In this document: piece after piece, positions 12,059 through 61,697 of the stretch
Layout: each line of letters opens with the position of its first letter
Position numbering within the stretch: position 1 is the stretch's first letter
NCBI GenBank assembly: GCA_021018995.1
Contig: CM037585.1
Span: 68,636,646-68,700,645, forward strand
Reading direction: 5' to 3'
DNA: 64,000 nucleotides
Source: Chloranthus sessilifolius
Lineage: Eukaryota > Streptophyta > Magnoliopsida > Chloranthales > Chloranthaceae
The notes under the pieces: model-generated
The model's database searches: none
Told to the model about the DNA's origin: nothing
What the model saw: only the letters and a program-made list of their open reading frames with translations
Position numbers and translations under genes: made by a program

Positions 12059-13330
12059 AACGTGACCAATTTCGCCTCAATCCGACTTTGTTTGATACCT
12101 CAAAATAAGACAAATATAAAACTGATGGGATTGACAATTGAGAACAGGTTGGGGAGACCTAATTGGCTCTAAAATAAGGATTTGGGCAGGGATTTCCTAA
12201 GGGCTGAATTCTAAAACTTAAGAATTAAGGATTAGAATCTAAAGACTAGAACTATAAAAAATTAGAGATTAAAATTAAAGGCTAAAAAGAAATCTAAAGA
12301 CTAAAATCGGAGTCGAAATTAGAAAAATCAAACCGTACGATTAAAGACTAGTTCTGAACTCTAAGAGTTAGAACCAAAGATTGATGATAGGACTGTAAAT
12401 TGAGATTTTAAAATAGAATTAGGCCTTAAGGATCGGTGAATTAGACCGTCAGATTAAAGACTGGTTCCGGGCTTTGAGGACTGGAACCAGATATAGAGAT
12501 TACGGTCTAAAAAAAAGGGGGTGCTACGGTCTAAGACTGAAAATTAAGACTGATAATTAAAACTAAGAAAAACCCTAAATCTAAAAACTAGAAGCTACGG
12601 TCGGAAACTAGAAATTAAATTCTTACCTACGATCGGGGCTGCGGAGAGAAATCTCGGAGTTTGAATCTCAAAATCATGGCTAATTTGCTTTAGGGAGTTC
12701 ACTCTCGGAACTCTCTGATTTTGGAATTTACGGTCTCTCCTTTCTAAATTTCGCAACCTCTCTCTCTCTCTTCGAGAAAAAGAGTTTTTATAGGTTTTCC
12801 TTCAATTACACGCCTGTTTTCGAGCGTTTAATTGAATTACGCATCAGTTTTCTAGCGCTTAATTGCTTTGAATTGGTCATCAACTCAGTGAGCGATCGGC
12901 TAAATTACTCAGCGGGTTTCCTAGTCCTAACAAAATTAGGGCTAATTGCGCGCGTGATGGGATATGCGTAATCTAATTAAGCGTGTTACCTGAAGCGCTT
13001 AATTGAGGAAACGTAGGGGTCAAGGGTAGGAGACTAGGTCGGGCGTAGGCCAATTGCGCGTTAGTGGTGTAGCGCTCAATCTGATTCCAGGCGCGTAATC
13101 GAGTCTCAAAACGGTCTATGAAAGGGAGTTTGATCTGAAAGGGGATTGATCGCGCGCTTGTGGTTCTGTGTGTGATCAAATTACGCGCGAGTTTTCAGGT
13201 GCTTAATTCAGGATTGTCCGGGTATGGTCTCAAGAATGGAATACAGGACTATATTTCAGTCTACGTCCCTACTATATATTATTGCTTAGTATATAGCCTC
13301 CCTATGTTGGGATCTGAGCCATAAAGCTAT
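12059..13330 (-). other. LTR-like DNA right of the CACTA, with minus-strand promoter architecture
   Basis: On the minus strand, in order: an array of GCGC-containing motifs (13215 to 12800), a TATA-like TATAAAAA (12792-12785), a GA-rich leader, and a splice-donor-like GTAGGTAAG at about 12630, followed by the purine-rich low-complexity tract seen also at 440-780. I interpret this as the promoter and leader half of an old LTR. No LTR terminus or target duplication is resolved. Confidence 0.4.
12800..13215 (-). repeat. Dispersed array of AAGCGCTTAATT / GCGCGTAATT motifs
   Basis: About ten variants of GCGCTTAATT and its inverse occur irregularly, for example gaagcgcttaattg near 12990, aattgcgcgttag near 13052 and attacgcgcgag near 13180. 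The core AAGCGCTT is palindromic. The motif is not found at this density elsewhere in the window. Confidence 0.6.
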
Positions 13331-13435
13331 TGTTTTAACTTGTGTTCAGCTATGTACTGTTGCATGGTCCCATGTCGAGGGTTAAAAAGGTCGAGGGCTG
13401 ACCAAACTAATTTGTGTACTCCGAGAGGGCGAAAT

Positions 13436-13507
13436 GAGGCTATCTACAATTACCTGCAAGATAACAGTGCAGAGGCTATCTACAATTACCTTCAAGATAA
13501 CAGTGCA
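13436..13507 (+). repeat. 36-bp tandem duplication
   Basis: Two adjacent 36-base units starting gaggctatctacaattacct differ at one base (tgc/ttc). The length is a multiple of three, but no gene is recognised around them. Confidence 0.9.
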
Positions 13508-13581
13508 GCTGTAAATATTGTAATGTTATACAGCCTTTCCCTCTCAGCTATTCCCCAGTTCCTCTGTGCTTTGGCCACGCA

Positions 13582-14190
13582 CTACAGAAAGTGTTTGTAA
13601 GTGTCGGCGCCCCATTGATATTGGTTGAAATTGGGGAGATTATCAATGAGCTTCAGGTAGGGCTCGTCGAGGGTGTATTTTATATTTGGGAAGAGGACGA
13701 TGGTAAGGGCGAAGAACAAAAAGAGTTTCAGAAAGTCCTCATCAGCATCCTGCTCAACGCTGTTAATGGTAGCGTGGATGTGTTCCCTCTTTACAGGGTT
13801 AAGGCCCCTGAAAAACCTATCTTTAATGGTTTGTTCTTTGGAAAGGGGCTTGGAGGGAGGGTAACGAGGGGGGTCATTCAAAGACCAATTATTAAGCCAA
13901 AATCAAGGGACCTAAATCTGATAGAGGCCTTTTCAAAATTTTAAATATTTTTCTTAGCCCAGAACTTCATGATTGCGTCCAGAAGGCCGTTGACGCTTTT
14001 CACATCCTTCAATGCCAAAAAAAATGCCCAGAAGATGGACTGCGAAAGGAGATTTTTCCTCTATTCAAATGCCTCCTCATATATCGCCCGACACTTCCTA
14101 ATGGTGCATTTAGTTGCAGGAGTCTTGAGAACCATCTTGAAATATGTGAATCAAAAAAAGGAGAAGTTTAGTGAAGAAAAAATCAAATAG
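13582..14190 (-). pseudogene. Remnant of a DUF1985-type Mutator accessory gene
   Basis: On the minus strand the block reads, in order, LKDVKSVNGLLDAIMKFW (about 14030-13975), SLDFGLIIGL (about 13905-13875) and INSVEQDADEDFLKLFLFFA followed by NLPNFNQYQWG (13760-13600). The same order and similar words occur in the plus-strand gene of the complete Mutator element (VVDAILTFW; ESDEDFLKL; DVETFNRTPW). This pattern fits the DUF1985 region of plant Mutator-encoded ULP-like proteins. Frames are interrupted and no protease domain follows. The two copies are clearly diverged, so this is a different family member. Confidence 0.6.
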
Positions 14191-14194
14191 GAGC

Positions 14195-15480
14195 GTCATC
14201 GCATTGAACTTGAGGCGCCCGCGCCTCAGGTTAAATGCGTCGACACTTCATAGTCCTTGTGCGCGGAGGTGTCAGTACTCCTATAAGGAAGCGCAAAGGC
14301 GCTTACCCTTCTGACAAGAAAGGGATACGCCTCTATTTGGTGGCATATTTGAAACTAAATGAAAATAAAAGGACACTCACCTTCTTAATAGATGCAAGAA
14401 AATGATTTCGTTGTTTTGATATTTCTTGCTGCGCTCTGAGAAGATAAAAATTAGGAGGGCAAAGATGAAAAGTAATTTATGAATTTTGAATTCACAAATT
14501 TGTCGTGTTAAATAATTTTTTGGGATGGAAATGATGGTCATTGCAAACCATGATGTCACGCGCCGTAATCCCATCTGCCTTACCCTACTTCTCATCTAAT
14601 GTTCTGACAATGATAATAAATGACATAAGGTCAGGCGTCGCTTCGTACAAAATGGTGCTATGTGTCAACATTTTGGGGCGCTTCGTGTCATATATAAAGT
14701 GCTTCCCTTCCTTGACGAAACGCTAGCGCTTCATGATAGTCGCGCTAGCGTACACTCATGAAAGTTTTTGCGCTCCTTAATGGAGCACTAATGCTTTGCA
14801 CGAAGAGCTAAGCTCCTCTGACAGAAGCGTCATTAATGTTAAATATTCGAGCAATAAATTTTAAATATTCGGCCAATACTGGTCTCCCCGAAGGGGTGCC
14901 TCAAATAGTCATTCAAATAGTAATGATTATTATTGAAATCACGAAGTCATGCCCCGCTTCTCATTTAATGTTCTAGCGTTGATAATAAATGAAATAAGTT
15001 CGGACGTCGTTTCCCTAATGGAGCGCTAACGCTTCGACATAGTCACGCTAACGCCCTGTAAAGAACAGGATTGTGTATCTTATACGAAGCGCAAGCGCTT
15101 CTTACCGAAGCACTAGCTCTTCTTTCCCAAGCTTCGTTAATGCAAAACATTCGGCCAATGATTGATCTTCCCGAAGAGCCACTTCAAATAGTCATTTCGA
15201 GTGACAATAATAGCCATTAAAAATAATGATATCATGTGCCGCTTCTCATTTAATATTCTAACGACGGTAATAAATGATATTACGCAAGGCATCGCTTCCC
15301 ACAAAAAAATATTAGGTGACGCAAGATAGGTGCTACGTGTCTTTTTTTGGGCACTAACAAAAGTGCTACGCTTCATGATAAAGGCGCTAGCGCGTCATAT
15401 AGGAAGCGCAACCGCTTCCTTTATAAAAGCATAAGCACTTTGAAGTCGGTGCAGAATATAAAGTTGGGATAATAATGGTC
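14195..15480. repeat. Degenerate tandem repeats of 300-400 bp rich in GAAGCGCTAGCGCTTC motifs
   Basis: A block containing ccgcttctcatttaatgttct-type sequence followed by gataataaatgaaataag recurs near 14580, 14955, 15240 and, more weakly, 15500. Between these lie clusters of variants of the perfect palindrome GAAGCGCTAGCGCTTC (for example near 14720, 15030, 15090, 15390-15420). A sub-block with attcggccaat and cttcccgaag recurs near 14870 and 15150. No coding region is supported. Confidence 0.6.
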
Positions 15481-15834: not shown

Positions 15835-15917
15835 GGGAAATTTACCTGATCGGCCCTGTCAGATACGCCTTTTACGTCAGAAGCCCTAAAGTTTCACTTT
15901 TACCCAGACAAACCCGC
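15835..15917 (+). repeat. MULE left terminal inverted repeat
   Basis: Matches the reverse complement of 25561-25643 at all but a handful of positions for about 83 bases, beginning at GGGAAATTTACCTGA. Confidence 0.9.
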
Positions 15918-16200
15918 TGCGCGCCGAGCTGAGGCACGCCTGTAGGAAATACCCAAACTACCCCCACAGTAATAAATAGCCGCCCTCTTTTCAAATCATT
16001 TACTGTTTTGAATTTACTTTTTCGTTCGAAGTCGGTGGAGAGTCGTTTACGCTTCGTGGACGATCGCGTTCAAAACTACAACCTTCAAGCTACCAAATCT
16101 GTAAGTTAGAATTAAAATTAGCTTCTATCGCTATAGATTTTTTATTTCTCCTCTCTTTGTTGCATATTTTGACATAATTTTTTTAGGTTTTCCCATATGT

Positions 16201-16402
16201 AATCGATATCGATTATATATGTAATCGATATCAATCCTATATATAATCGTTAACGATTACATATTTAGTCGCTATCGATTACATTACATCAAGATCGTTA
16301 TCGATTACATTTAGAGTCGATAACGATTATATATGTAGTCGTAATCGACTATATAAACTGTGGATGACGAATCTATAACAAATCGATATCGACTCTCTAT
16401 GA
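16201..16402. repeat. 22-bp palindromic repeat array 1 of the MULE
   Basis: Units of 22 bp consist of a 14-bp core, consensus AATCGATATCGATT with a variable centre (GNTANC), and an 8-bp AT-rich spacer such as atatatgt or acatattt. The array lies between the left terminus and the first small ORF. Confidence 0.9.
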
Positions 16403-16670
16403 ATATAATTAATACCCATCATTTGAAATAATTTTCCTATAGTTATTACCCTCGATGCCATAATAAATCATACGAGGTTTTATATTTATCTCAGCCGACG
16501 TTCAATTTATTGCCAACTACCCTTTTGTAAAACCATTATGGCAAGTTAGGTTGGAAGAATGAGAAAATTTAATACAACGATTCGTATTCCACAATCTAGG
16601 AGCTTTAAATACAGGTTTAGTTCGTCCTTAGCAAACCACCTATCATCCCTACCAGCCCATATTTTTCCCA

Positions 16671-16844
16671 ATGTCTGACGACGAAGAAAAAACCTTCTAT
16701 AACCCAATAAAGTTCGATCCTGTATGGGAGGACCCACCACCACCACCAGAACCAGATCCTCTTGGAGATTTTGGCGAAGGAAGAAAAGAAGAAGAGGAAG
16801 GAAGAAAAGAAAAAGAAGAAGGAAGAAAAAAAAAAGAAACTTAA
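16671..16844 (+). CDS. Small ORF of 57 codons, acidic then Lys/Glu-rich
   Basis: ATG at 16671 opens MSDDEEKTFYNPIKFDPVWE, then a proline stretch (DPPPPPEPDP) and a Glu/Lys/Arg-rich repeat tail ending at TAA 16842-16844. No family is recognised. It lies between palindrome arrays, upstream of the DUF1985/Ulp1 exons, on the same strand, and could be its first exon or a separate small protein. The repetitive GAAGAAGGAAGAAAAG tail recurs in part at 17203-17250. Function unknown. Confidence 0.35.
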   Translation: MSDDEEKTFYNPIKFDPVWEDPPPPPEPDPLGDFGEGRKEEEEGRKEKEEGRKKKET

Positions 16845-16959
16845 GACGGAACCACCCGGCTCTCCACCCCATCCACCACCTGCTCTTCATCCTTCTTCCT
16901 AACTTTTCTTTTCTTTTTTAATTATAAGTGAAAAAATTTGAATGTAATTGAAATATTTT

Positions 16960-17700
16960 GCAAGTAAATGAAACAACTTTTTGATGCAATGGCGACTTCA
17001 TGAAATCTTTTGAGTCCGTAAATTAAATATTTTCTATTTAAATAAGGGAAAATTTCCTGACAGGTAAATTAAACATTTTGAGATCAATGTAGACTTATAT
17101 TTAATTGATGGCGATTTCATAAGTAATCGAGATCGATTACATTGAGAGTCGGTAGCGATTACATATAGGAACGATATCGATTATATATGTAATCGATGTA
17201 GGTAAAGAAGAAGGAAGAAAAGAAATAGAACAAAAGAAAGAAAAAGAAACTTAAGAGTCAGTAAATTAAGTAATTTCTATATAAATAAACATTTTGAGGT
17301 CATTGCGAATTTATATTGAGTCGTTGGCGATTTCATAGGTAATCGATATTGATTACATATAGAGTCGTTAAGCGCTTACATATGTAATCATTATCGATTA
17401 TATGTAGACATGCAATCGATTATATATGCAAGTAAATGAAACATTTTGATTCAATGGCGACTTCATGAAATCTTTTGAGTTAGTAAATTAAATATTTTCT
17501 ATATAAATAAACATTTTGAGGTCATTACGACCTTATATTCAGTCGATGGCGATTTCATCTATAATCGATATCGATTACATCTAGACTCGATATCGATTAC
17601 ATATAGAATCGGATTACATCTAGAGTCGGTATCGATTACCTATGTAATCGATAACGACTCTATATGTAATCGTCTGTTTTATATACATTTCATCAACATT
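16960..17700. repeat. Palindromic repeat array 2, nested in larger tandem duplications
   Basis: A block with gtaaattaaatattttctat, ggcgatttcat and a cluster of AATCGATATCGATT-type 22-bp units is repeated about three times (from about 16960, 17250 and 17435). The AT-rich parts are well conserved and the palindromes vary more. It lies immediately upstream of the first DUF1985-like exon. Confidence 0.8.
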
Positions 17701-17836
17701 TTAACTATCCTTGTTTGTATGGTGCTCATCCTTTCTTTTTATTACAGTTCATTTCAAAAGATCCAAGATGGTTGTACACCGAAATTTGCCAAGGTTAAGT
17801 GTTCGCCTTGAATCTCTCTGAAAGTGCTACCCAGAT

Positions 17837-18238
17837 CGGAAGAAGTTCTTGAGAGATTCGGTTTTTGGTGGAATATTTCAAATGTCAAGGTGTGGGATTT
17901 CTTTCCGATGTGGTGGATGCGATCTTGACATTTTGGGTTGATAAAACCACTTCCTAATTGAAGACTGATGTCTATCTTCTAAGATAGACATTGTATTGAT
18001 CGGGCCTTGCCGAAGTTGGCCCGTAAAAGTATACCCCGGAAGAAGTTAATGAGATTCGCTTTTGGTGGAATATTTCAAATGCCGAAGGGTGTGGGATTTC
18101 TTTCCGATGTGGTGGATGCGATCTTGACATTTTGGGTTGATAAAACCACTTCCGAATTGAAGACCGATGTCTATCTTCTAAGATAGACATTGCATTGATA
18201 TCGGCCTTGCCGTAGTTGGCCCGTAAAAGTATACCCCA
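17837..18238 (+). repeat. 200-bp tandem duplication in the DUF1985 exon
   Basis: The unit beginning agaagtt at 17841 and containing ggtggaatatttcaaatg, gtggtggatgcgatcttgac and ctaagatagacattg is repeated from 18041 with high identity. The 200-bp period is not a multiple of three, so it shifts the reading frame. Confidence 0.88.
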
Positions 18239-18749
18239 TCCCGAAAACCATCGGTAGAACAAACCATTAGATACAAATACTTTTGGAACGCCTCCTAAAA
18301 ATTCTCCTGGTCTCATATAGATGCTTGCAATTTATAGAGCGGAAAGTGATGAGGACTTCTTAAAGTTGTCCTTCTGCTTGTGTTGTGCATATTTCTCTTC
18401 CCGGTCCCACCATCAGATTTGGAAGACCACATCGACCTCGATGATGTGGAGACCTTTAACCGAACTCCGTGGTGCGGAGTATATAATAAAGGCGCGGCGA
18501 ATAGAAAAAACCGAGAGCTAGATAAAGCCCGAAGGCGTACAACACATATGGATGCATATGTGTACTTCAATGGTGGGCTTATGAGATCCTCGCCGATATA
18601 TCGCCATCCCTAGGCCTCAAGGACCCTTTCCACTCTTTGAAATGGTGACAGTATGCGATCCGTGATCAAAGGTTACACTCGCGGGCAGATGTTAGACAGC
18701 AAGGTATGAGGTCTATTGCCTATTCAAAAAAAAAGCAACTTACCGATTC

Positions 18750-18965
18750 ACTCTAGAATCGATACCGATTCATTACGTAATCGCTACATCGATTCATTTA
18801 TTAATCGATAACGATTCTTAATAATCGATATTACTTACCTTAATAAGTAGTCGCTAACGATTCATTACCTAATCGATAGTGATTTGTTAAGGAATCGATA
18901 ACGATTTATTAAATAGTCGGACCGATTCTTTACATAATCGAGTGATTTATTATATATATAACGAT
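18750..18965. repeat. Palindromic repeat array 3 of the MULE
   Basis: About ten degenerate AATCGATAACGATT-type cores at roughly 22-bp spacing. The array fills the gap before the acceptor (ttctttcaaag) of the coiled-coil exon at about 19001. Confidence 0.85.
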
Positions 18966-19616
18966 TATTTTATTACATTTGTTTCATTTTCTTTCAAAGG
19001 TTCGCGCTCCCCTCATGCCTCGTGGCTTTGAATTAGAGATACCCGTGGTAAGAGAATATCTACGGGTTCAAAAGGAGGTTGGGGAAGAGGAAAGAACCGT
19101 CAAGAAAGTCAGGAAGAGATTCGGCCAAGAAGAAAAGAAATTACATTCCTACGAGAATATTGGAGAGGGAGAGGAAGAATGGGATGACGATCGACGTCAA
19201 GAAGAACCCCTCTCGAAAAGGGCCCGTGCATGTGGGAGAGGGTCGCCAAGAACTAGGGGGCCGCCAAGGAGAGCTGGCGACAAAGATAGCCCAGCTAAAG
19301 CGTCTACCTCCAATGATTCTTTGTTGAGGAGGGTCGATCATTTGACGCTGGATAACTTGAAGCTCACCCAAAGAGTGAGCGATTTGGAGGGAGAGAATAA
19401 GGCCCTGGCTAAACGTTGCGCTTCTTTAGAGAAACTATGCAACTCCTTCAATGAGAGGCTGAATTCAAGGGATGCGGAGTGGCAGAAGTTAAATCACTAC
19501 AACTATTTAGTCGAAGGGCCGGTGATCGATATAAAAGAACTCCTTGAAAATTTATTGGAGGCGAGACCTAAGGTATGTGTTGAAATCTAGTTTTAGATGT
19601 TCAATTTTGTTAACAT

Positions 19617-19800
19617 AAATCGATATTGATTATATATAGAGGCGATACCGATCATATATACAATCGTTATCGATTATATATGAAATCGATGTCGATTCTA
19701 TTTACAATCAATAACGACTATCTATATAATCGATAACGATCATATATAAAATTGATAGCAACTATATATGTAATCGGTAACGATTGTATATATGATCGAT
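19617..19800. repeat. Palindromic repeat array 4 of the MULE
   Basis: About eight 22-bp units (AATCGTTATCGATT-like cores with tatatat spacers). The array fills the intron between the coiled-coil exon and the Pro/Ala-rich exon. Confidence 0.88.
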
Positions 19801-20499
19801 TTGGACTTTTTAAAATGTGGACTAAAAATTAATTCTTATTTTGCATCATTATTACGATGTACAGGATGTGGCTATGGAGGAGCTGATATCGAAGGTGTGC
19901 GACACAGCCTTCGGTGAGGAACCATCAGCTCCTGCTCATCAGGTTCCTCCTCCTCCTCCCGTTGATGAGGTGAAGGCAGCTGCTGACAAGCAGCCTGAGA
20001 CCCAAACTGATAAGGGTCCTGCTGGTGAAGAGGAAACCTCTTCCCAATTGCCTCACCAACAAGCTGAGCTTCGCTTAAGACCTAGGCAAGCGAAAGCCAG
20101 CAAAGTAATTGCCATCAAACCTAAGGCCCAGCGAAGGGTAGCGGTTGAAAAGAAGCCTACCGCGAAGGCCAGCGAAGGACCAACTGCTGAGCCTGGACCG
20201 GTGGCAGTCATTACCGCTGGTCCTGGGTCTACTGATGAAGATGCTCCTGCTGAGCTAACAGCGGAGCAAAAATATATGCTAGACATATGGAACAAGCCTC
20301 TGAAGGAGGACGAGTAAGTAGAATTACCCTGAATACTTAACTTTATTATTATATATTTATCGTGAAGATTAGTTAAGTTGGCCATTTTTTATGCAGAGAA
20401 TATGTTAGCACTGTCGGCAAGTATAAGCTGGTGGTGCAATCCTTCAGATGTCTGGCGGGAACCCAGTACCTGGATAACTTTGTAAGTTTAACATACTGT

Positions 20500-20780
20500 A
20501 GGCAAAATCGTTATCGATGGCTTATGGAATCGGTATCGATGGCTTATGGAATCGGTATCGATGGCTTATGGAATCGGTATCGATGGCTTTTAGAGTCGCT
20601 AACGATGGCGTATGTAATCGTTAGCGACTCTTACGCCATCGTTAGCGACTCTGTACATCATCGAAATCGATTCATTAGCGAGTCGATAACTATTTCGACG
20701 ACTTAAATAATCGTTACCGACTCTAAAATGAATCGATATCGATGATGTACAGAGTCGCTAACGATTATGTATTTAACTCT
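20500..20780. repeat. Palindromic repeat array 5 of the MULE
   Basis: About twelve units. Here the spacer is ggcttatgg, and the first units (AATCGGTATCGATGGC) are nearly identical tandem copies, pointing to recent local expansion. It fills the intron between exons 20397-20481 and 20816-21100. Confidence 0.88.
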
Positions 20781-21829
20781 CACTGCATATTTTAATCTAA
20801 CTGCATTGGTTTCAGGTTATGGGCGCCTACCTGAGACATTTGGAAGTTATTGATGATAAAATTCATCCTGAGAAAGATGACAAAAACTTCCTAATGGACC
20901 CTGCCACACTGACGTACATGGGCTATGAACTGAGAGATTTCAACAGGTTCCTGCTTGCTGAAAAATTGTACGACCAGTCGATCGAGGTTCAAGTTCACAG
21001 GTGGGCTGCCTATAGACAAAGAGAGACCGGAGGGAAGAAGCTGATGGAAACTTTCTTCTTCAATGAGCTTCGGAATCTGTGGGCTCACGAATGCAACATA
21101 GTATGCTTTTATCCTCTTTATAATTATTCTTTTTAATTTTTTCTATCATACCCTTTGAGATTATATTACTTTTTTGTAGATATTTATGCCAATACATTCT
21201 GAACAATCACTACCTTTGGGCGCTATGATCGTAAGAAGGTAGTCGAGCGATCGATAATGATCGACCCTAAATTTAATAGGCCCTCTAAGGAAAGATATGT
21301 GTCCCAATTGCAGGCGCTGGTAAGATATTTTGCTTAGCATATCTTTTATCATTGTTAGCTTAACATATCTGACACTTCTCTCTATTATTTCGAAACAGAC
21401 CCAATACCTTCCCGTGATCTTATATTCGTACGGTGACTCCGCTGCACTAATGAATAAGAACTATCCTTGGTCATCTACTGACTGCCGGATCAAAGCCGTC
21501 CCCCGACAAACCAACTCCTGTGATTGTGGAGTGTTTGTCGTGAAGTATGTCGAATACTTTATGATGGGGAAGAAATTTGACTTCGCGCAATCAGATATAG
21601 AGAGGATCGAGTAAATTGGCCATATCAGGCTACATACACGAGCGATGATGGCGAATCTGGCGAAGGAAGACAAAAAGGAGGGGGAGCAGCAGTAGTGTGG
21701 TTGTATTTGAATATTTTTGTAATAGTGTGGTTGTATTTGAATATTTTTGTAATTGTAAATTAAATTATTTTGAATAGAATTGCACTATTTTTATGTACTT
21801 GTAGTTTAAAAGTAGAATAGCATCCATTA

Positions 21830-22085
21830 GCGACTACATATATAGTCGTCATCGACTATATAAATAATCGGTGACGACTCTGTATGTAATCGCTCCCGAC
21901 TATATACATAATCGTCATCGATTGTATAAATAATCGATATCGACTATATATGTAGTCGTCATTGACGATATCCATAATCGATGCCGATTCTTAAATGAAT
22001 CGATATCGACGTTATACATAGTCGATGGCGACTCTATATAGAATCGATATCGATTAGTTATACAATCGATAACGACTCTATGATA
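21830..22085. repeat. Palindromic repeat array 6 of the MULE, between the convergent genes
   Basis: About eleven 22-bp units with cores such as AGTCGTCATCGACT and AATCGATATCGATT. It sits exactly between the 3' ends of the plus-strand DUF1985/Ulp1 gene and the minus-strand transposase gene. Confidence 0.9.
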
Positions 22086-22175
22086 CATCAGTAAAGTCTA
22101 TATTACAGTGTAAAAAAATATGAATTCTGAATTTCTCATTTACATTCAGTCTATCATTATTAAAAATATACACTG

Positions 22176-24845
22176 TTAGCCCATCGGTCCCACTGCCTTG
22201 CAGCTCCTGCGGTTGTGACCATATTTATTGCACCTGCTACACTGTAGTGCCCTAACCTCACCCTTAGACCTTATCCTTCTCTTCCTCGGACGGCTTGCTT
22301 TCAATAATAGGGTGGTCTCACTTTCATATTTTTCGTGGAGTTGCTTTGGAACTCCCATTGACTTTTATCGAGGGTGGGAACCCATTGCTCGTCATATGTT
22401 TGTCTAAAGCAAGCGGTGAAAATCAGTTCTCACAAAATTTATGGTAGTCGTAACTTCTTGATTGATGGCATACGGCATGGGAGCAAGGCAAAGCCATAAA
22501 TGTGCCAACGGCGGCCACTTCAGGTCTTATGTTCCAAGTCGACGTGATGAATGTAATTTCCGAAATTGACTTGGAATTGATCGCGCCCGTATGGTTGAGC
22601 TCTCTTTCTACCGGCCCATTGCAACACCTACTTCATGTGAGCGTCGCTTTGGGCGGAGAAGGTGGTCCATTTATCGAGATATCTCTGCGTTTTGAAAATG
22701 ATCGTGACTTTCTCTCTAGTAGTTACGATTAAGTCAATAATTGGTCTCTCTCGAGCTATCTTTAGCACTGCTTTAAACTTTCGACAATATTCGTAGATGG
22801 GGACTCGTCGCCTTCCTTCCATATGCGCGTGCCCAATGCTTTGGATCTATTTTCAAAATATATTCTACGAGAATCAGGATCTTTCTTCATTTCGTTAATA
22901 AAATAATCAAATTTCTCTTTCGAATATGCCTTGGCACTCTACCATAGACCCTTCACATTGTTCACAGGATACTTGTCTTTGCCAAATTTTGTGTCATATG
23001 CATCGATAGTTGTGATATCGTTAGGAAGATCGTTTCACCGCATTTATTAAACCCTTGACTGTCCGTGATAATTACGAGATCTTCGTTAAACCCACCGATC
23101 ACGAACGCACCTACCCGTTCAAGAAACCACATCCACGTATCCTCTTCTTCTAACTCGACCAGGGCAAATGCTAACGGTAATATATGACCATTACCGTCTT
23201 GCGAGGAAGCGATAAGAGGATCCTTGAAGCGTCCTCGTGGTGTAGTCTACAAGCAATATCGACGAAGTGTATTGCGGTAACCCAAATGCATGGGCCAAAA
23301 CTCCAAAAAAATCTTTGAAACTTACCGTCAAGAGTAAGTTGAAAGGATGTTTGTACATTAGGATCTACCCTTTCCATCTCCTTCACGTAGGCTGGTAGAT
23401 CAACAAATTGTCCTTCCCAACTTCCTCTAATATCATTAAGGGCAAGCTCTTTTCCTCTCCAAGCTTTTGCATATGAGATTTGCACATTATAAGCTTTTGC
23501 AATATCAAACATTATCGACGCCGGTGTGTAGTCGAATCCTTCCATAAGTTTATCCCGTACATAATTCGCTACGAAGGAGATTGTTGCATTACGGTGACCA
23601 TGCGGTCCGATCTTAGCGGCTCCGCATGTGTGAGTACTATTGAATGTCTTGATTTGGAAAGAATCGAGCCCAGTCAATTTAGAAGCATGTATTCGCCACG
23701 AACAATCGGGTTCGTAGCATCCGGTCATCCTTTCGATAACTAGCGGTCCTCAAAGGCCGAATTTGAAAGTTTTTCTCCACCGCGTATTCTTTCAATGCTC
23801 TTTGAAATGTTTGTTTGTCTCTGAAGATCTCTCCAAATTTAAACGTCCAATTCCGATATTCAGTTTTCACCTCTTCATCGGAGGAATCGCCCGATGTCTC
23901 TGACATTTCGTAATCTCCGTCTACTAGGGGATTGTCAATATCTCTCACAAAAATTTTCGGGTCCTCTTTGATAAACCCATCTGGTTCGCCTTCATATTCT
24001 TCTTCTAAGGTATCTTCATGCATGGCGGTGTTCTCGGGTGGTTGACTAGATCCTTCACCGAAGGGGTTCTGATGTGATTGACCGGATCCTTCACAGAATG
24101 GATAATGGCGTGGTTGGCTAGGCCCTTCACCGAAGGGGTGCTCATATGTATGGACATGGGGTTGAGTTACTCCGGTAATTCCCATCGATGGCATGGTAGA
24201 ACATAAGTCTTGAGTAAACCAAGTTGTCCATCCACCGGGGAAGATATGACTGAAATCGTTGGTATCCACCACCCTTTCTGAAGTATAGTCTAACCATTGA
24301 CTACATTGTTGTGACCCATGCATGTATTTTACTGGGTCATCATACGATTCAATCGGAGCATCGTTTAAATCAAATGTTGCTTTCCCTCTGCCATCGTTCG
24401 CCGCAATATAACCGTCATCGCCTAACGGGACGGTATCGTATACAATTTCATCCTCAAACTTACATGGCTGAAATGAATGAGACACAAAATCAGTCCCGCC
24501 GAGATTTACTTGTTCAGCTTCAACTGGGAAGGATGACGGTTCCTTAATGATGAATACTTTTATAACGTCCACTCCGGATTTATAAAACGTAAATAATGTA
24601 GCCAAATCATCAGAGTCCAAAATGTCGGCAACCACAGGCGTATTCACTATCTTCATATGAAACTTTGTGGAAACTGTTTCATCCGCCTTCGCAAAACTGA
24701 CAGCAGACATTCGCCTTATGAATTGTTCATAAGAAATTTCAATTGAAATGTTAATAAGCCTCCGGCGGCCACCTTCATACAAGCCATCATCGTTTACAAG
24801 AAGGCCATCATAGTGACAAAGAAGAGGAATCCTCACGCCCGTCAT
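22176..24845 (-). pseudogene. mudrA-type MULE transposase, broken by frameshifts
   Basis: Minus strand, N to C: start at 24845 with a globular N-terminal segment (VRIPLLCHYDGLLV); acidic linker with repeated HPFGEGPSQP-like peptides (24150-24020); MuDR-type DNA-binding region (FKFGEIFRDKQTFQRALKEY; then TGCYEPDCSWRIHASK); the helix region IMFDIAKAYNVQISYAKAWRGKE; the MULE catalytic core (DGNGHILPLAFALVELEEE; WMWFLERV; IITDSQGFN, about 23200-23040); a SWIM-like PCSHAVCHQ (about 22490); and a CCHC knuckle CSRCNKYGHNRRSC (about 22240-22195). Frames change near 23720, 23240 and 23170, with further stops between 23040 and 22400. The order matches plant mudrA transposases, which cut and reinsert the element. 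Confidence 0.85.
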
Positions 24846-24914
24846 CGTCTGTTTAAGAATGAGAAGGAAGGGTCATAAGACTGATGAAACAAAAGAGAAA
24901 AGACGACTATAACT

Positions 24915-25190
24915 CTTAGTCGATTGCAAATACAATCGATATCGACTCTATTTGAAATCGATATTGATTGTTTATACAATCGATATCGATTGTTTATACA
25001 ATCGATATCGACTCTATATACAATCGGCATCGACTCTATTTGAAATCGATATCGATTGTATAAACAATCGATATCGATTTCAAATAGAGTCGTAATCGGC
25101 TCTATACACAATCGATATCGATTGTATACACAATCGTCATCGACTCTATTTGGAGTCGGCGATTATTGTATCAAATCAATATCGGATGTG
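24915..25190. repeat. Palindromic repeat array 7 of the MULE, upstream of the transposase
   Basis: About twelve 22-bp units, many with the full palindrome AATCGATATCGATT and spacer gtttatac or tctatttg. It lies between the transposase start and the right terminus, in promoter position for the minus-strand gene. Confidence 0.9.
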
Positions 25191-25199
25191 TATGGAGCC

Positions 25200-25560
25200 G
25201 ATGACGAAATACAGGGCCTTCTTCTTCTAAGAGATACTGCATCACTACATAACACTAATAAACTGAAAATAGGGTTAAGTATGATACCTCTAGTCGCAAG
25301 GACAAAGTTCAGGGTCTTTTTGCCACAATGAAGAAATGCAGGGCCTTCTTCTTCCAAGCCTCTGTTTTCTTCTTCGACATAGCAGATCGGAGCAGATCAG
25401 AGCAGATCAGACTAAGTAAGGACACTCCGTCTAGGGTTTTACACCTCTAACTTTTTTGCAGGTTAAAATGAGGAAGAAGACGATGCTTTGTTGGTTAAAG
25501 AAGGTCTTAGAAGGGGGTAATTTGGACCTTTTACTCTCCTTAGGGTCGGCTAGGCTTGGA
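25200..25560. other. MULE right subterminal noncoding region
   Basis: A segment with gaaatacagggccttcttct is repeated at 25207 and, slightly changed, near 25335. No gene is supported. Confidence 0.45.
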
Positions 25561-25643
25561 GCTGGTTTGTCTGGGTAAAAGTGAAACTATAGGGCTTCTG
25601 ACGTAAAAGGCGTACCTGACAGGGCCGGTCAGGTAAATTTCCC
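25561..25643 (-). repeat. MULE right terminal inverted repeat
   Basis: Reverse complement of the left repeat. The last bases, TCAGGTAAATTTCCC, are followed by the duplicated target CAAAAGAAT (25644-25652). Confidence 0.9.
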
Positions 25644-25652
25644 CAAAAGAAT

Positions 25653-28252: not shown

Positions 28253-28854
28253 TGTAACGTCTTGAAAAATTTTGACCTTTGAACAGTGCGCCTCGGTGTA
28301 CGTGTCTATCGAGTCACATGCCCGACTTTGTAGAGAGACAATTGGTAAGTTAAAATTAGATTATGTGTTAAGTGAATCAAGAATAATGGAGAGTTGTATA
28401 AACCTTTGAATGAGTGTAGATACACCTAGTTGTGGTGTATATGCTTGACACCTAAACCTAAAACTAGATATAAGGGAATTAAACTAAAAGAGAATTTATT
28501 TCTCTTATGAAGTGGGTTGTTGAGAGAGTTATTAAGAGAGAGAGGAGAGGGAAGAGCAATCAATAAGGTATGGTGAGTGTGCACATGAGGAGAAATCGAT
28601 AAGGGATATTAATTGCGAGATTGGATCGCGTGAAATTCAAAGCTTTGAGCTACGAAGCCCTAGCTGTGCGTGAGAATCGGAATCGAGGAATCGATAGATT
28701 AAAAAGTAAGATTTTATATAAATGCTGTAAGAAATAAATGAGTAAATTAGTTATGTATGTGAGTGGGAAAATTAAAGAAGAAATGGATAAGAATTGAAGG
28801 AAAAATAAGAAGAAAAAGTTAAATCAGAGTTGGGTGAAAACTGACAAAACCGAT

Positions 28855-31975: not shown

Positions 31976-31978
31976 CAA

Positions 31979-35972: not shown

Positions 35973-35977
35973 ACGCA

Positions 35978-45078: not shown

Positions 45079-45235
45079 TTAATCGGCGCTTGGATTAAAA
45101 TCAGCACCGAAGTCCTTCTGATAACCAGCTACGTCGCCCTCCTAAGGCTCCTGGTACTCGACATCCACGAGGTCAACGAAATCAATACCAATCGGATCAG
45201 AATAGCTAACGTTCACTCCGTCTATATAATCACCT
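45079..45235 (-). other. Acidic micro-ORF in the solo LTR
   Basis: Minus-strand frame following CTGCAG, encoding GDYIDGV, VDVEYQEP and ADFNPSAD before TAA, with one internal TAG. It is the counterpart of 41608-41757. Confidence 0.4.
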
Positions 45236-46757: not shown

Positions 46758-47560
46758 AGGATCGATCGATCAGTATATAATATATAAAATATTCAATTTG
46801 GGTTAACATCGATCGATCGGAAGTTGAAATCGATCGATCGACAATAAATATAAGTATCATTGGCTCTGTCCAGACTCGATCGATCGGTCATAAAAGTCGA
46901 TCAATCGGTATATTAAAAAAACTACTGAATTTGGAGCAGGGTTTATGTGTCCAACCTTTAGTGCAAAGTAAGTTATATTATTAAAATAATATGGTACTTG
47001 AGTACTATTATTATATGCAAAGTAAGTTATATTATTAAAATAATATGGTACTTGAGTACCATTGTGTTTTTATAAGAATATAATACTTATATATAATATT
47101 TCATAGGCTTTATAATATAAGTTACAAGGAACCTGTACTTTAAATATAATATAATAATAACACAAGTGTACTTTGAATTTTATAAGAGCATATAATATAA
47201 ATGTAATCATTACACTTGCAAGCACAACAAAGTGATTGATGGGTTGAAGGCCAAGTTCGATCCATCAAGCAGGGCCGGTCGATCGATCAAGCAAAATGGA
47301 TCGACCGATTGATATTAATGAGACAGAGACAAACAAGATTAGGTAAAAGTTGTTCGGTTAATAACCAATCGATCGGGTTGAAGAAATTGATCGATCAACT
47401 GTTAACAATAAAGGTGTAAAGTCAAATCTGTCCAGAATCGATCAATCGAAAAATGGAAATCGATCAATCGACTGAGTAAAGAAAATATAATCTTACTGCT
47501 CGGCTTGAAATCGATTGATCCGAATAGGAAATCAATCGATCAATTTCAAAAATTCCCGAG
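46758..47560. repeat. ATCGATCGATCG motif arrays in the solo LTR
   Basis: Clusters at 46758-46910 and 47270-47545 hold about sixteen TCGATCGATCG, TCGATCAATCG or TCAATCGATC words in pairs about 20 bases apart. Between them, 46975-47030 contains a direct duplication of about 57 bp (gcaaagtaagttatattatt). The arrays lie between the donor-like and acceptor-like sites of the LTR. Confidence 0.8.
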
Positions 47561-48194
47561 CCTCTACGGTTCCGAAATAAGATCCGAAAATAGGGATAAA
47601 TAAATACAACACAATTAAAAGCAATCACATCTAGGGTCAGCTACATTACTCAATTTAGAATAATATTTTAAAAAATATAAAATAAGATTCATTTTATTTA
47701 GCCAGTTGATACGCGATCGAACGTACCCTACGCGACGAGATTTGAGAAGAACAAAATGGATTGACGGGTACTCACCTCTTAAAGTGTGATCGATAGATCT
47801 ACGGCGATTAGGTGAAAGATCGACGTCCCACGCGATGGCCCATCCAAGATATCTCTTTCTTCTTCCTCCTTGATCTTGACGGGCGAATAGATCACGGTGG
47901 TTCTTTGTGGAAGAACACACAAAAGTTTGAAAGAAGAGATTAAGGAGTTTGAGAAGAGATGGGTTGAAGAAGAAAGGTTGTGTCGACTAGGGTTTTTTTA
48001 GAAAAGAAAAAAATAAGAATAAGAGACGGCTAGGGTTTCTTATGAAGAAGAAAAGTAAAAAGAGGTTTGCGTAACTTAAATTTAAATAAGGTTTTCTCAA
48101 ATAGGATAGGTTCCGGTGTGGAGAGATACTACCAAGTATAGTGCAAACACACATCTAACACCACAAAAGATTTAAGAAAATCTAGGTCGTTACA

Positions 48195-53120: not shown

Positions 53121-53124
53121 AAGC

Positions 53125-54493: not shown

Positions 54494-54571
<78 letters not shown>

Positions 54572-56136: not shown

Positions 56137-56423
56137 TGTACAAACCTAATGTTAAGTAGTGAAAAATGCCAGTTTTCACCCCTTAATCTGACCTTTGATG
56201 GACCTGTGAGCACACTAATAAACACCTGTTGAGTCTGTTTTGTAGATAGCAATAAAAGACAGGAATAGTGTAGAAAATCACTCAAAAATGTTGCATAAAG
56301 AAGTCCATCTCTCAGCACAGTGCAGACCCAGCAATGGCACACAGAGGGCTGCACACCATTGAGCCCTTGGGGCGCGTGGCAACAGCAGGGCAAGGCAAAG
56401 GAAGTGAAAACAGGCTGAAAGCA

Positions 56424-56938
56424 TCCTATCGAGAAATTATATGAAGACTTTGATAGGAGCTGAGAGCTAAAAAGGGAGGAATTCATGCAGTTGGAAAGGT
56501 TTCGATAGGATTTGAAGGTAGAGAAAGGATGGATTCGTGTGGATTGAGGAGTTCGATAGGATCTAAGAACCTATCGAGTAGCTGAAAGAAAGGAAGAAAC
56601 CATCCTATCGAAAGCCTGTCTGAGGTGTAAGGGGAACCTATCGAATGGTTTCCTGAACCTATCGAAATGGAGACGTTGGAACAGAACTTACCGAAGGGTG
56701 CTTGAGCCTTTCGATAGGAGTGAGAGCAATCATATCAGAATGATGACATGTAGAGCTGGACCTATCGAAATGGTCCTCCAACCTGTCGAATGCTCCAGGC
56801 AAAGGGCTGAGAATGCTGAAGCTTTAAGAGAAGGCTCATCCTATCAGAACCTATGAAGAGATCTGAGAACCTAGCGAAATGACCAAAAAGCTCCCTTTAA
56901 ACTTGTCGGAAGCTTCCTCAACCTGTCGAAATCGTGTG
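56424..56938. repeat. CCTATCGAAA motif array in the Athila-like LTR
   Basis: About eighteen copies of CCTATCGAAA, TTTCGATAGG or one-base variants (CCTGTCGAA, CCTAGCGAA), in both orientations, 20-40 bases apart, upstream of the LTR TATA box. Confidence 0.85.
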
Positions 56939-57140
56939 AAGAACTTCTCAGAAAGTAGGTTGTTCACATGCTGCAACTTGGTGACCTGTTGCACACAAAC
57001 TGAGGCACATTGGTGACCGGCACGATGATCTAAAAGATGCCCTAGGAAACCCTAACCAACCCACATGCTCTGACAAAACTCTAACAAACTCTGAGGACCT
57101 TCTAGAAGGGAATATTGGCGGAAAAAATAAGAGAGAAAGC

Positions 57141-57148
57141 TATATATT
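57141..57148 (+). promoter_or_regulatory. LTR TATA box
   Basis: TATATATT about 200 bases downstream of the CCTATCGAAA array and followed by a purine-rich leader. It is the likely core promoter of the Athila-like LTR. Confidence 0.5.
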
Positions 57149-57610
57149 GAGATCCCCAATTGCAATTGGTGGAGATCGAGATTTGGATCAAATTCTGGAG
57201 ATCAGAGCTTACAGCGAAATTCTATTTTCCCTCTTTTAGCTCAACTATGGTTGGCTAATTCCCTAGGAGCAGCGAGGAGAGAGGTTAGATCTGTAATTGG
57301 GTAAGGTTGAGAGTGTTATTGTGGGTTAATTGCTACACAGACTACAGATCTGAGAGCATTTCATTGTAGAGCGAGTTTCATTGCAGTGTAAATGTTATTT
57401 TTACTGTTTTATTTTCAATCTATAGTACCTTTGGTTTCATTTGGTGCTCGATTGGATTTGTGTAGAGGAGTCTGTTGATCAGCTCACCCAGTTAACTGGT
57501 AGACCTCTTGGATACCATTTGATCTCCCTAGATCTGATATCCCTGCAATTTCTTGTGTCTGTGCCCTGAAAATTACAACATCTGTAGTGGTTTTAATGCT
57601 CTGGTTGAAA

Positions 57611-57835
57611 CCTTTGGTTTGAAAGAATTCCCTAGGATGATCTGTGACCATTAGAGTGGACAGATCATAGCCTTAAGATCAGTCCAATCTCTGGTTTCAA
57701 TTAGATTCTTCTACCATAAACCTTTAGATTGGATGAAGTATATAGGATGGTTTGTGACCATTGAAGTGGACAGACCATAGCCTTAAGATCAGTTAAATCC
57801 TTTGGTTTAGAGTGGAATCTTCTACCCTGCAGCTG
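57611..57835 (+). repeat. Tandem duplication of about 110 bp in the LTR
   Basis: A unit with cctttggtttgaaagaattc, gtgaccattagagtggaca and agccttaagatcag is repeated once, with roughly 80% identity by eye. Confidence 0.8.
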
Positions 57836-58271
57836 TGTTTGTAGCCAATTGAGGGATTTGCGTGCTTTGAACCCCTGTAACATGATCAGCTCAACCTGAT
57901 TGCAGTAAGACCAATCGCCAAGTTGCTCTTCTCCATTTTCTGTTTTTAAACCCTCACACTTGCAAGATCTAGATCTCTGGACTCGGTCTCAGTTAGTTTG
58001 CATTTCAAGTGTAGTTTAGTTCAAGTGACAACCCTTTTAACCTCTCCCCTTTCTTTTAGCTAACCTAGTATTAGATAGGGTGCCAGATCTCTTACAGATC
58101 TGGAGATTTACCATATTTGGAACTCATCTCCCTGTGGACATTCCCTTACTTACTCTTTTAAAACTTGCTACAATAGGCCCTGAATACTTGCAGGTCTGTG
58201 TGTGTGATCTGCCTTGAATTGAGTGAATTTAAACCCCTTTTTGTAGGCAAGGCAATTTGCCAATAAGTTTT

Positions 58272-58289
58272 TGGCGCCGCTGCTGGGGA
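58272..58289 (+). other. Primer binding site (tRNA-Asp type)
   Basis: TGGCGCCGCTGCTGGGGA closely matches the tRNA-Asp primer site TGGCGCCGTTGCCGGGGA used by Athila/Tat-group plant retrotransposons. Confidence 0.9.
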
Positions 58290-60182: not shown

Positions 60183-60549
60183 GGGCCACCAGTGGTGGAC
60201 ATGAAGGGGCGACCAAATGAGAAGAAAGAGGATAATGATGATCCTTAAGAAAAGATAAAAATAAAAAAGAAAGATGACCAATTGGCTAAGGCTGCAAATG
60301 AGGGAGCAATCCCACATTTGCCATTTCTTAAAGCATTGCAAACACCACCCCTTTCAATAAAGGGCAAGGTAAAATAGAGGAAATGATGGAAACTTTTAAG
60401 CAAGTAAAGATCAACTTGCCTTTACTTTATGCAATTAAATAAGTTCGAGCCTATGCTAAGTTTCTGAAGGAGTTATGCACTCATAAAAGATAATCTAGGA
60501 TACACTTATCCAAGAAGGTTTTTTCAGCAGAAAAGGTAAAGCAAATTCT

Positions 60550-61054
60550 GTCTATTGCTACCCCCACAAAACTTCAAGACCCTGGAGTGCCCACTATCCC
60601 CTGCATCATTGGGGATCATAAAATTGAGAATGCCTTATTGAATCTGGGAGCTAGTGTGAATTTACTGTCATATACAGTATATGAGAAGCTGGGCTTAGGA
60701 GAGTTGAAGCCCACACATGTGGTCTTGCAATTGACTGACAGATTTGAAAGGAAGCCTCTAGGGGTCATTAAAGATGTCCTGGTGGGAGTTGACAAGTTCT
60801 TTTACCCTGCTGACTTTTTGGTCCTAGACATGGAGCCAAGCAAATGTGTTTCTTCCATACCTGTGATTCTAGGCAGGCTCTTTTTGGCCACTGCTAATTC
60901 CTATATACAATGCAGGTCAGGTGTCATGGAAGTCTCCTTTGGCAACATGAAAGTAAAGCTGAATGTGTACAACATAGCTCATCAACCCCCTCTAGATGAG
61001 GCCTGTTTTTCCATTGATGTACTAGAGGAGGCTATGCATGAAAATCCGCATTAG
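60550..61054 (+). pseudogene. Protease domain of the Athila-like element
   Basis: Encodes PGVPTIPCIIGDHKIENALL, then NLGASVNLLSYTVYEKLGLG, where Athila proteases have DLGAS; Asn replaces the catalytic Asp (codon AAT at about 60640). The domain ends normally near VILGRLFLATANSYI (about 60868-60912). It is separated from gag by stops (60180, 60246, 60377, 60440, 60491). No reverse transcriptase, RNase H or integrase follows: by 61200 the sequence becomes noncoding, then the accessory-ORF promoter begins. The element is therefore internally deleted. Confidence 0.85.
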
Positions 61055-61471
61055 CTGATGCAGGGCAATGTTTGGTTCACAAATACAAAACAACAGCTAG
61101 GGAATGGACATTTGCTGCAGAAAAGATCCATGAAAGGTACCAAGTTTGATGAGCCTGAGGAGACCATGGACCTTCAAGATCCTCTAGATTAGCCCCTGAA
61201 GTTCAGTATGTATCATATGTACCATACTTTGCTTTTGTTTTAGGTGTTTACTTTGTTGTTGATCGATTTTTTATTTTTTTCTGTAATAAAAACTGCCATG
61301 CTAAATACTAGGCCATCATTTCAATATTACCAGCTATCCTGAGATAATGGTAGCTTGTCCACAAGAGAAACAAACTGTAGAGCGACCACGATGAAGAAAT
61401 CTGCGAGTCTTTGAAATTTGAGAGTGCCCATGACCTTATGTGGGTTTTAGGAGCTCTCAATAAGTCAAGTT

Positions 61472-61697
61472 CACCTTTCGTTAGGTCACATGGTGATTTC
61501 GACAGGATATATGATGGTTTCGATAGACACTGAGGCCTATCGGAAGGATGGTTCCACCTATCAGGATCCTATCGAATCATCCCTTTTGAAAGCTTTGTCA
61601 GCTAAGCTTTCGACAGGACGCATGAACCTATTGAAAACATCCTATTCATCCTATCGAAATCGTATTTCATCCCTTATATACCTATCGATAGGTCATT
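61472..61697. repeat. CCTATCGAAA motif array upstream of the second accessory ORF
   Basis: About ten copies of the LTR motif (TTTCGACAGG, TTTCGATAGA, CCTATCGGAA, CCTATCGAAA) and one perfect palindrome, CCTATCGATAGG (61681-61692), surround a TATA-like sequence at 61675. It is the same motif as in this element's LTR. Confidence 0.87.
61675..61681 (+). promoter_or_regulatory. TATA box of the second accessory ORF
   Basis: TATATAC lies within the array. It is followed by a CT-rich leader (61725-61770) and a possible donor, GGGGTAAGTTG (about 61908), before the ATG at 62004. This looks like an internal promoter separate from the LTR. Confidence 0.5.

What the first reader, a model, noticed from the sequence alone, without database searches (positions are those of the whole stretch)
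12800..61697. Six unrelated element families each carry a private array of CG-containing palindromes in noncoding DNA
Seen directly: AATCGATATCGATT (MULE, 16201-25190), CGACCGGTCG (gypsy, 28855-39125), CGATCGATCG (solo-LTR family, 27669-27930 and 46758-47560), CCTATCGATAGG (Athila-like, 56424-56938 and 61472-61697), GAAGCGCTAGCGCTTC (DUF1985 remnant, 14195-15480), AAGCGCTTAATT (12800-13215). Each core is palindromic, contains CG, differs between families, and avoids coding DNA. One explanation is repeated evolution of element-specific dimeric protein sites. The precedent I know is Arabidopsis VANDAL MULEs, whose VANC proteins bind short motifs clustered in the element's noncoding DNA and remove methylation. 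Finding this across MULEs and two kinds of LTR retrotransposon would be new to me.
Basis: partly seen in the sequence, partly recalled or inferred. Interest (0 to 1): 0.88.

Follow-up and report, generated by a model that had tools for sequence, protein, structure and literature searches.

The report
Jumping genes with private palindrome switches
Several kinds of plant jumping gene appear each to carry an accessory protein gene of their own together with a private array of short, mostly palindromic DNA sites beside their promoters, which looks like a self-activation switch.

Summary
The arrays are real, but they are not six unrelated palindromes. Symmetric arrays sit in a MULE (22-bp spacing, 0 of 62 sites in putative coding DNA), a gypsy element and a 3.5-kb repeat; a degenerate one lies by a DUF1985 remnant. 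The Athila-like motif is asymmetric (CCTATCGAAA), and the 12.8-13.2 kb motif is weak and asymmetric.

The MULE resembles the known VANC/KIU type: its accessory gene has Ulp1, and a relative has DUF1985 plus Ulp1.

The main result is new to the finding. Both LTR elements carry one array in the LTR and another just before a TATA-like box and an accessory ORF downstream of the gag-pol or gag-protease region. The two ORFs are homologous (E 3e-13). Searching the host genome by protein family PF20167 alone gave 30 loci: 29 had an unseen private palindrome (ACGGACGTCCGT) upstream of the ORF, and the one element followed is Ty1/copia. Ten of 10 further loci and 6 of 6 relatives of the gypsy ORF had arrays, some degenerate. 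Motif class follows protein clade, and half-sites change symmetrically between relatives.

I infer that PF20167 proteins bind their own element's sites and switch on its internal and LTR promoters, like foamy-virus Tas or VANC. Binding is untested.

The parts
15835..25643 (.). MULE with 98-bp TIRs and 9-bp target-site duplication CAAAAGAAT (15826-15834 and 25644-25652)
   Evidence: TIR 15835-15932 vs 25643-25546, 90.8%; TSD copies at 15826 and 25644; MULE transposase domain PF10551, E 3e-5, 24.8 bits, below the curated cut-off 27.6
16195..16400 (.). MULE site array (5' end side)
   Evidence: tandem repeat period 22; sequence; CpG o/e 3.68
17097..17680 (.). MULE site arrays before the accessory gene
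18741..18960 (.). MULE site array in a noncoding gap (intron inferred)
19618..19810 (.). MULE site array in a noncoding gap (intron inferred)
20506..20775 (.). MULE site array in a noncoding gap (intron inferred)
21831..22085 (.). MULE site array between the two convergent genes
24920..25200 (.). MULE site array upstream of the transposase gene
17770..21696 (+). MULE accessory gene, broken in this copy: DUF1985-like region, coiled region, Ulp1 peptidase
   Evidence: Peptidase_C48 E 1.4e-8, 35.3 bits, above cut-off; tblastn of the L005 DUF1985 region E 3e-18 with stops
22150..24845 (-). MULE transposase gene, broken in this copy
   Evidence: PF10551 and PF03108 weak matches; ORFs
13520..14298 (-). 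DUF1985 remnant
   Evidence: PF09331 E 5.2e-6, 26.9 bits, below cut-off 35.1; tblastn E 1e-10 to the L005 DUF1985 region
14195..15480 (.). degenerate palindrome array GAAGCGC-NN-GCGCTTC
   Evidence: 8 sites with <=3 mismatches, none elsewhere in the window
12800..13215 (.). weak asymmetric array GCGCTTAATT
   Evidence: 6 sites with <=1 mismatch
26090..28252 (+). 3.5-kb repeat copy A, first part, with CGATYRATCG array at 27669-27930
40551..42040 (+). 3.5-kb repeat copy A, second part (split by the gypsy insertion)
44790..48120 (-). 3.5-kb repeat copy B, inverted, with arrays at 46756-46905 and 47240-47545
   Evidence: about 71% identity to copy A
28253..30609 (+). gypsy 5' LTR, palindrome array about 28850-29160
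   Evidence: 85.2% identical to the 3' LTR; TSD ATATG; 11 sites
38094..40545 (+). gypsy 3' LTR, palindrome array about 38692-39128
   Evidence: 17 sites
35745..35975 (+). gypsy internal array, followed about 13 bp later by TATATATATATAAGG (inferred internal promoter)
   Evidence: 7 sites; sequence
36228..37559 (+). gypsy accessory ORF, PF20167-like, stops in this copy
   Evidence: PF20167 E 4.1e-7, 30.5 bits, below the curated cut-off 45; BLASTP to the Athila ORF E 3e-13
56150..58271 (+). Athila-like 5' LTR with CCTATCGAAA array at 56425-56930; PBS-like TGGCGCCGCTGC at 58272
   Evidence: 86.9% over 1160 bp to the 3' LTR part downstream of the window, which has 13 sites; the fetched part ends there; PBS-like word
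61470..61697 (+). Athila-like internal array with TATATA inside it (inferred internal promoter)
   Evidence: 10 sites; sequence
62004..63391 (+). Athila-like accessory ORF, frame broken near 62760; homolog of the gypsy one, with a basic N-terminal stretch
   Evidence: BLASTP E 3e-13, 27% over 169 aa; translation; no Pfam match at E<=10

Best explanation
The arrays are operator-like site arrays for a DNA-binding protein that each element encodes itself. In the MULE this is a DUF1985-Ulp1 protein of the VANC/KIU type, whose sites lie in its noncoding gaps and probably serve sequence-specific anti-silencing. In the LTR retrotransposons (gypsy, Athila-like and, elsewhere in the genome, Ty1/copia) it is a PF20167-type accessory protein made from an internal promoter. 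It binds, mostly as a symmetric dimer on helically phased sites, beside the TATA-like boxes of its own promoter and of the LTR, giving a self-feeding switch that turns on the element and leaves the rest of the genome alone. Shown: arrays, their positions, homology of the two ORFs, motif class following protein clade, symmetric half-site change between relatives. Inferred: that the protein binds, that it is a dimer, and whether it activates, removes silencing, or both.
For: Both LTR elements in the window have an array in the LTR and one before a TATA-like box and the accessory ORF, and the ORFs are homologous. Out-of-sample test by protein family alone: 29 of 30 loci have 3-12 copies of a new palindrome upstream of the ORF and 0 of 30 have one between ATG and domain end; in 24 of 29 the best TATA-like word starts 10-13 bp after the last site. 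10 of 10 loci chosen for different profile coordinates have arrays in four motif classes that match protein clades. 6 of 6 relatives of the gypsy ORF (57-65% identity) have sites upstream. Inner bases of CGA-N4-TCG sites are complementary in 107 and 98 of 160 cases vs 68.6 and 57.9 in shuffles. Spacing is 19-23 bp in 97 and 39-45 bp in 45 of 148 distances under 70 bp, and 22 bp in 40 of 61 in the MULE. MULE: 9 of 9 motif-dense loci are relatives with arrays, and a relative has DUF1985 plus Ulp1.
Against: No binding, expression or methylation data. The 30 loci are mostly one family. L014 has no upstream array. Arrays also occur in random stretches of this genome (clear in L063, asymmetric in L057 and L062, weaker in L054). 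The dyad permutation test is not specific: 6 of 10 random loci also reach P<0.01, two of them with only 2-3 sites. The Athila motif is not symmetric. Within single elements mirror positions do not covary, except one pair in the gypsy arrays. No lower CpG decay in the gypsy LTR array. No detectable homology between PF20167 and DUF1985. In three loci of the GTCGATTAATCGAC class the nearest TATA-like word is 42 bp away, and in L044-L046 and L050 none scores well.
Confidence: 0.65

Rival explanations
1. Host transcription factors bind the arrays: each family captured and multiplied enhancer sites for some host factor, and the accessory ORF is only a gene driven by the same enhancer.
For: The site-TATA-ORF layout fits any activator. 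ONSEN is driven by host heat-shock factors (PMC12859917, passage).
Against: Motif class tracks the clade of the accessory protein. Relatives of one ORF show matched half-site changes, which fits a co-evolving partner better than a conserved host factor. Arrays recur beside PF20167 ORFs in a copia and a gypsy element.
Confidence: 0.2
2. The accessory protein binds the sites but mainly represses: a self-limiting autoregulator that keeps copy number low.
For: The last site lies 10-13 bp from the TATA-like word in 24 of 29 loci, where a bound protein could block the promoter.
Against: The nearest working precedents, VANC and foamy-virus Tas, activate (PMC5735166; PMC3185757, passages).
Confidence: 0.08
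3. The arrays are neutral tandem repeats grown by slippage or unequal crossing-over, with no function.
For: Tandem Repeats Finder reports many of them as arrays. Similar arrays occur in random stretches.
Against: The palindrome is kept while the spacers differ; positions recur upstream of ORFs and in LTRs; motif agrees across proteins 59-84% identical; 0 of 62 MULE sites in putative coding DNA.
Confidence: 0.04
4. The sites serve transposition itself: transposase or integrase binding, DNA cruciforms, or packaging signals.
For: MULE arrays include ones near both ends.
Against: MULE sites also fill internal gaps, and LTR-element sites sit before an internal promoter.
Confidence: 0.03

Closest known systems
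VANC anti-silencing system of VANDAL MULEs, including Ulp1-bearing VANC genes (KIU)
   Same: MULE; accessory gene with DUF1985 (relative L005) and Ulp1; family-private short motif in arrays in noncoding DNA including gaps of the accessory gene (PMC5735166 parts 1-3 of 6; PMC13317346 passages)
   Different: Site is a CG-containing palindrome with 22-bp spacing; VANC21 motifs are arrayed in one orientation; this MULE has 98-bp TIRs while VANDALs are described with degenerate TIRs (PMC10398659, passages). LTR elements use PF20167, with no detectable homology to DUF1985
Foamy virus Tas with internal promoter
   Same: Internal promoter drives an accessory gene; sites lie before the internal promoter and in the LTR (PMC3185757, passages)
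   Different: Retrovirus of animals; the sequence relation of Tas to PF20167 was not tested; activation by PF20167 is inferred only
Additional ORFs of plant LTR retrotransposons (Athila PF20167 aORF, Grande gene23, Retand TRP28)
   Same: A sunflower Athila 3' aORF matches PF20167 and has a predicted nuclear signal (PMC11728184, passages); Grande gene23 has its own promoter and a nuclear product (PMC7264820, passages); Retand has antisense ORFs with predicted DNA binding, and tandem repeats in about half (PMC11963269, passages)
   Different: The passages seen do not link an ORF to a private site array in LTR and internal promoter; a PF20167 ORF in a copia element was not met in them

Membership tests
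VANC/KIU-type MULE (15835-25643) | MULE transposase | tested here: inconclusive
   PF10551 E 3e-5 and PF03108 E 9.6e-4, both below curated cut-offs, in a broken copy; TIR and 9-bp TSD fit
VANC/KIU-type MULE (15835-25643) | Accessory gene with DUF1985 | tested here: inconclusive
   Relative L005: PF09331 E 1.5e-5, 25.4 bits, below cut-off 35.1; window copy only by similarity to L005, with stops
VANC/KIU-type MULE (15835-25643) | Ulp1 domain in the accessory gene (KIU form) | tested here: met
   Peptidase_C48 35.3 bits and 35.6 bits in L005, above cut-off 20.7
VANC/KIU-type MULE (15835-25643) | Family-private motif arrays in noncoding DNA | tested here: met
VANC/KIU-type MULE (15835-25643) | Degenerate TIRs as described for VANDALs | tested here: not met
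   98-bp TIR at 90.8%; it is therefore not filed as a VANDAL
VANC/KIU-type MULE (15835-25643) | Protein binds motif and removes methylation | not testable with these tools
   no binding or methylation data
PF20167 (Transposase_32) accessory ORF | Profile match over the curated cut-off | tested here: inconclusive
   150 of 150 scored genome loci over cut-off; L036 63.4 bits; window gypsy ORF 30.5 bits, below 45; Athila ORF no match at E<=10 but BLASTP E 3e-13 to the gypsy one
Foamy-virus-Tas-like circuit | Sites before an internal accessory promoter and in the LTR | tested here: met
   window gypsy and Athila-like, copia element of L036; promoter function itself inferred
Foamy-virus-Tas-like circuit | Protein activates both promoters | not testable with these tools
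   no expression data

The most novel reading that the evidence does not exclude
PF20167 proteins are a large, so far unrecognised class of retrotransposon-encoded, sequence-specific DNA-binding regulators in plants. One gene-plus-operator module (accessory ORF, internal promoter and a private array of mostly palindromic, helically phased sites, repeated in the LTR) is shared among Ty1/copia, chromovirus-type gypsy and Athila-like elements. Each lineage evolves its own lock and key by matched changes in both half-sites, so that it can switch on or de-silence itself alone. This would be an origin of targeted self-activation separate from VANC.
Probability: 0.55. Interest if true: 0.93.

Novelty: new variant of a known kind. 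Interest (0 to 1): 0.86.

Why it matters
Functions of most additional ORFs of plant LTR retrotransposons are unknown (passages of PMC7264820 and PMC11728184). A private site array beside the ORF gives a direct, testable function for a very common family (13,855 first-look candidates in this one genome, of which 150 were scored). It would extend element-specific self-activation from MULEs to LTR retrotransposons. The protein-motif pairs also form a natural data set for learning the recognition code.

Tried and rejected
Mirror-position covariation inside single elements: no excess in the MULE or the 3.5-kb repeat, and 1 of 5 pairs in the gypsy arrays (P 0.005, with sites of the two LTR copies both counted). 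MULE spacers: 1 of 10 copies below P 0.05 (L008). Lower CpG decay in the gypsy LTR array: not seen. PF20167 vs DUF1985 homology: not seen (hhalign probability at most 0.25%). Protein database searches with the two accessory ORFs: no hit at E<=0.001, though plant proteins are in that database. PDB sequence searches: nothing significant. A Fisher test of CpG in Athila motifs was dropped because the motif itself contains CG. The genome-wide count of CACGGACGTCCGTG was asked for 12 times and never answered; the genome search with the Athila ORF did not complete. Structure prediction never ran. Sasaki et al. 2022 (EMBO J), probably the key paper on VANC diversity, is not held. Its statement on helical periodicity is recalled, not seen. 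Searches that showed me no report of private arrays tied to LTR accessory ORFs: (listings; open-licence papers only).
Full report
What was claimed and what is there. Exact counts are low, but degenerate forms are far above shuffles for all six (motifs chosen from the same sequence). Three arrays are strong and symmetric: the MULE (AATCGATATCGATT), the gypsy element (CGACCGGTCG and variants) and a repeat of about 3.5 kb in two inverted copies (CGATCGATCG). One is degenerate (DUF1985 remnant). The Athila-like array is strong, but its site is asymmetric, CCTATCGAAA, in both orientations (15 and 9 sites). The 12.8-13.2 kb motif is weak and not a palindrome, and may belong with the DUF1985 remnant beside it (inference).

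The MULE. It spans 15835-25643 with 98-bp TIRs and the 9-bp duplication CAAAAGAAT. None of 62 sites lies in the coding intervals that I drew by hand from ORFs, and 40 of 61 adjacent distances are 22 bp. The motif occurs 4988 times exactly in the 2.17-Gb host genome, against 7 for its reversed control. Nine motif-dense loci from the listed first places were fetched: 9 of 9 are relatives (aligned pieces 64-88% identical), with 5 to 9 array clusters each. The consensus site is the same in all ten copies; the base flanking it is most often G/C in L005, L010, L012 and L013 and mostly A/T in several others, that is, changed on both sides, although within single copies the two sides do not covary. 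The accessory gene has an Ulp1 domain; relative L005 has DUF1985 (below the curated cut-off) plus Ulp1. Ulp1-bearing VANC genes that act on their own motifs are described (PMC13317346, passages). This part is a new member of a known kind.

The LTR elements. The gypsy element (28253-40545, TSD ATATG) has reverse transcriptase, RNase H and Tf2-1-like SH3 domains (the lineage name Tekay is my inference) and, after pol, an ORF that matches PF20167 below its curated cut-off. The Athila-like element has the same plan: array in the LTR, gag-protease, array with TATATA, ORF. Part of its 3' LTR, just outside the window, repeats the array (13 sites; 86.9% over 1160 bp). The two accessory ORFs are homologous (E 3e-13, 27% over 169 aa). 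In the Athila-like LTR the array ends roughly 200 bp before the nearest TATATA, and in the gypsy LTRs about 100 bp before a TATA-like word, so tight spacing holds for the internal promoters, not for these LTRs.

Out-of-sample test. I searched the host genome with the PF20167 profile alone: 150 loci were scored of 13,855 candidates, all 150 over the cut-off, and the 30 best were cut out. Twenty-nine of 30 have 3 to 12 copies (<=1 mismatch) of a palindrome not seen in the window, CGGACGTCCG, upstream of the ORF, and 0 of 30 have it between ATG and domain end. L014 is the miss. In 24 of 29 the best TATA-like word starts 10-13 bp after the last palindrome, though in many it is TTTAAAAA. One element, that of L036, was followed: copia gag, integrase and RVT_2, LTR copies 99.4% alike over 617 bp, and four sites (<=2 mismatches) in the LTR shortly before CATATAAAT. 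The 30 are mostly one family, so I fetched 10 more, chosen for different profile coordinates: 10 of 10 have arrays, in four classes (ACGGACGTCCGT in 3, GCGGACGTCCGC in 1, GTCGATTAATCGAC in 3, CCTCGCGAGG in 3). A tree of 21 domains (9 of the first 30, these 10, and the two window ORFs) groups each class together. Proteins 59-84% identical share one motif, and L046, about 40% away, has a one-step symmetric change. Element types of the other classes were not determined.

Relatives of the window's gypsy ORF. Of 150 scored matches (57-100% identity; 36,573 candidates) I took 0.9 kb upstream of 6, at 57-65% identity and with open frames: 6 of 6 have sites before the ORF, 1 to 5 exact CGAYYRRTCG each, strongest in L071 and degenerate in L066, L067 and L070 (no shuffles were run on these six). 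The outer CGA/TCG stays and the inner four bases change in matched pairs (CCGG in L071, TTAA in L070, mixtures elsewhere). Over 160 sites (window LTR5 left out, the 3.5-kb repeat included) the inner pairs are complementary in 107 and 98 cases, against 68.6 and 57.9 in shuffles; over the 119 sites without window LTRs and repeat, 74 and 73 against 47.8 and 40.7. Most of this signal lies between families, and sites within an array are not independent. The 3.5-kb repeat has the same kind of site and may be an LTR of such a relative (inference).

Controls. Of ten arbitrary 2.7-kb stretches, L063 has a clear palindrome array (TCAATCGATTGA), L057 and L062 asymmetric ones and L054 a weaker one; the other six show little. 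PF20167 loci score higher: P 0.0009 on the best CG-containing 8-mer; P 0.04 if only palindromic CG 8-mers count, a measure that misses the GATTAATC class. The dyad permutation test does not separate well (6 of 10 random loci below 0.01). Arrays of this kind are common in this genome, as they would be if such elements fill it.

CpG. The Athila-like body is strongly CpG-poor (o/e 0.07-0.23), while its arrays keep CpG (0.70, 1.04). This fits selection on the site or protection, and does not tell which. In the gypsy LTR pair, decay inside the array was no lower than outside (12 of 33 vs 20 of 75).

How it most likely works. The accessory protein binds its own element's sites near the promoter of its own gene and in the LTR, giving positive feedback and specificity by motif and density. 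Foamy-virus Tas has this circuit (PMC3185757, passages), and VANC has the private-motif logic (PMC5735166, parts 1-3 of 6). Whether PF20167 proteins recruit transcription, remove silencing marks or both is open. Transposase_32 is a database label; nothing seen here speaks for transposase activity.

Limits. One genome of an unnamed host (its GH81 protein is at most 77% identical to the 120 listed relatives). No structure, binding, expression or methylation result was obtained.

Noticed in passing
11761-11960: Tandem CG-containing inverted repeats around GGAGACGGCTTTAAGCCGTCTCC; possibly another element's site array.
   Followed up: no
L063: A random control stretch carries a strong TCAATCGATTGA array with sites about 20 or 40 bp apart; its element was not identified.
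   Followed up: partly
L057: A random control stretch carries 18 sites of an asymmetric motif near ATCCTCTCGA about 30 bp apart, recalling the Athila-like motif.
   Followed up: no
L046: Besides GCGGACGTCCGC this PF20167 locus has three CCACGTGG palindromes and ACGTCTGC-type variants.
   Followed up: no
50292-52490: Uninterrupted GH81 endo-beta-1,3-glucanase gene on the minus strand, probably a host gene.
   Followed up: partly
17837-18237: A 200-bp direct duplication inside the broken accessory gene of the window MULE, 91.7% alike.
   Followed up: no
55600-64000: The Athila-like element is strongly CpG-poor outside its arrays, unlike the MULE and the gypsy element.
   Followed up: partly
43912-44043: Weak zf-RVT match (E 0.011), possibly a LINE remnant.
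   Followed up: no
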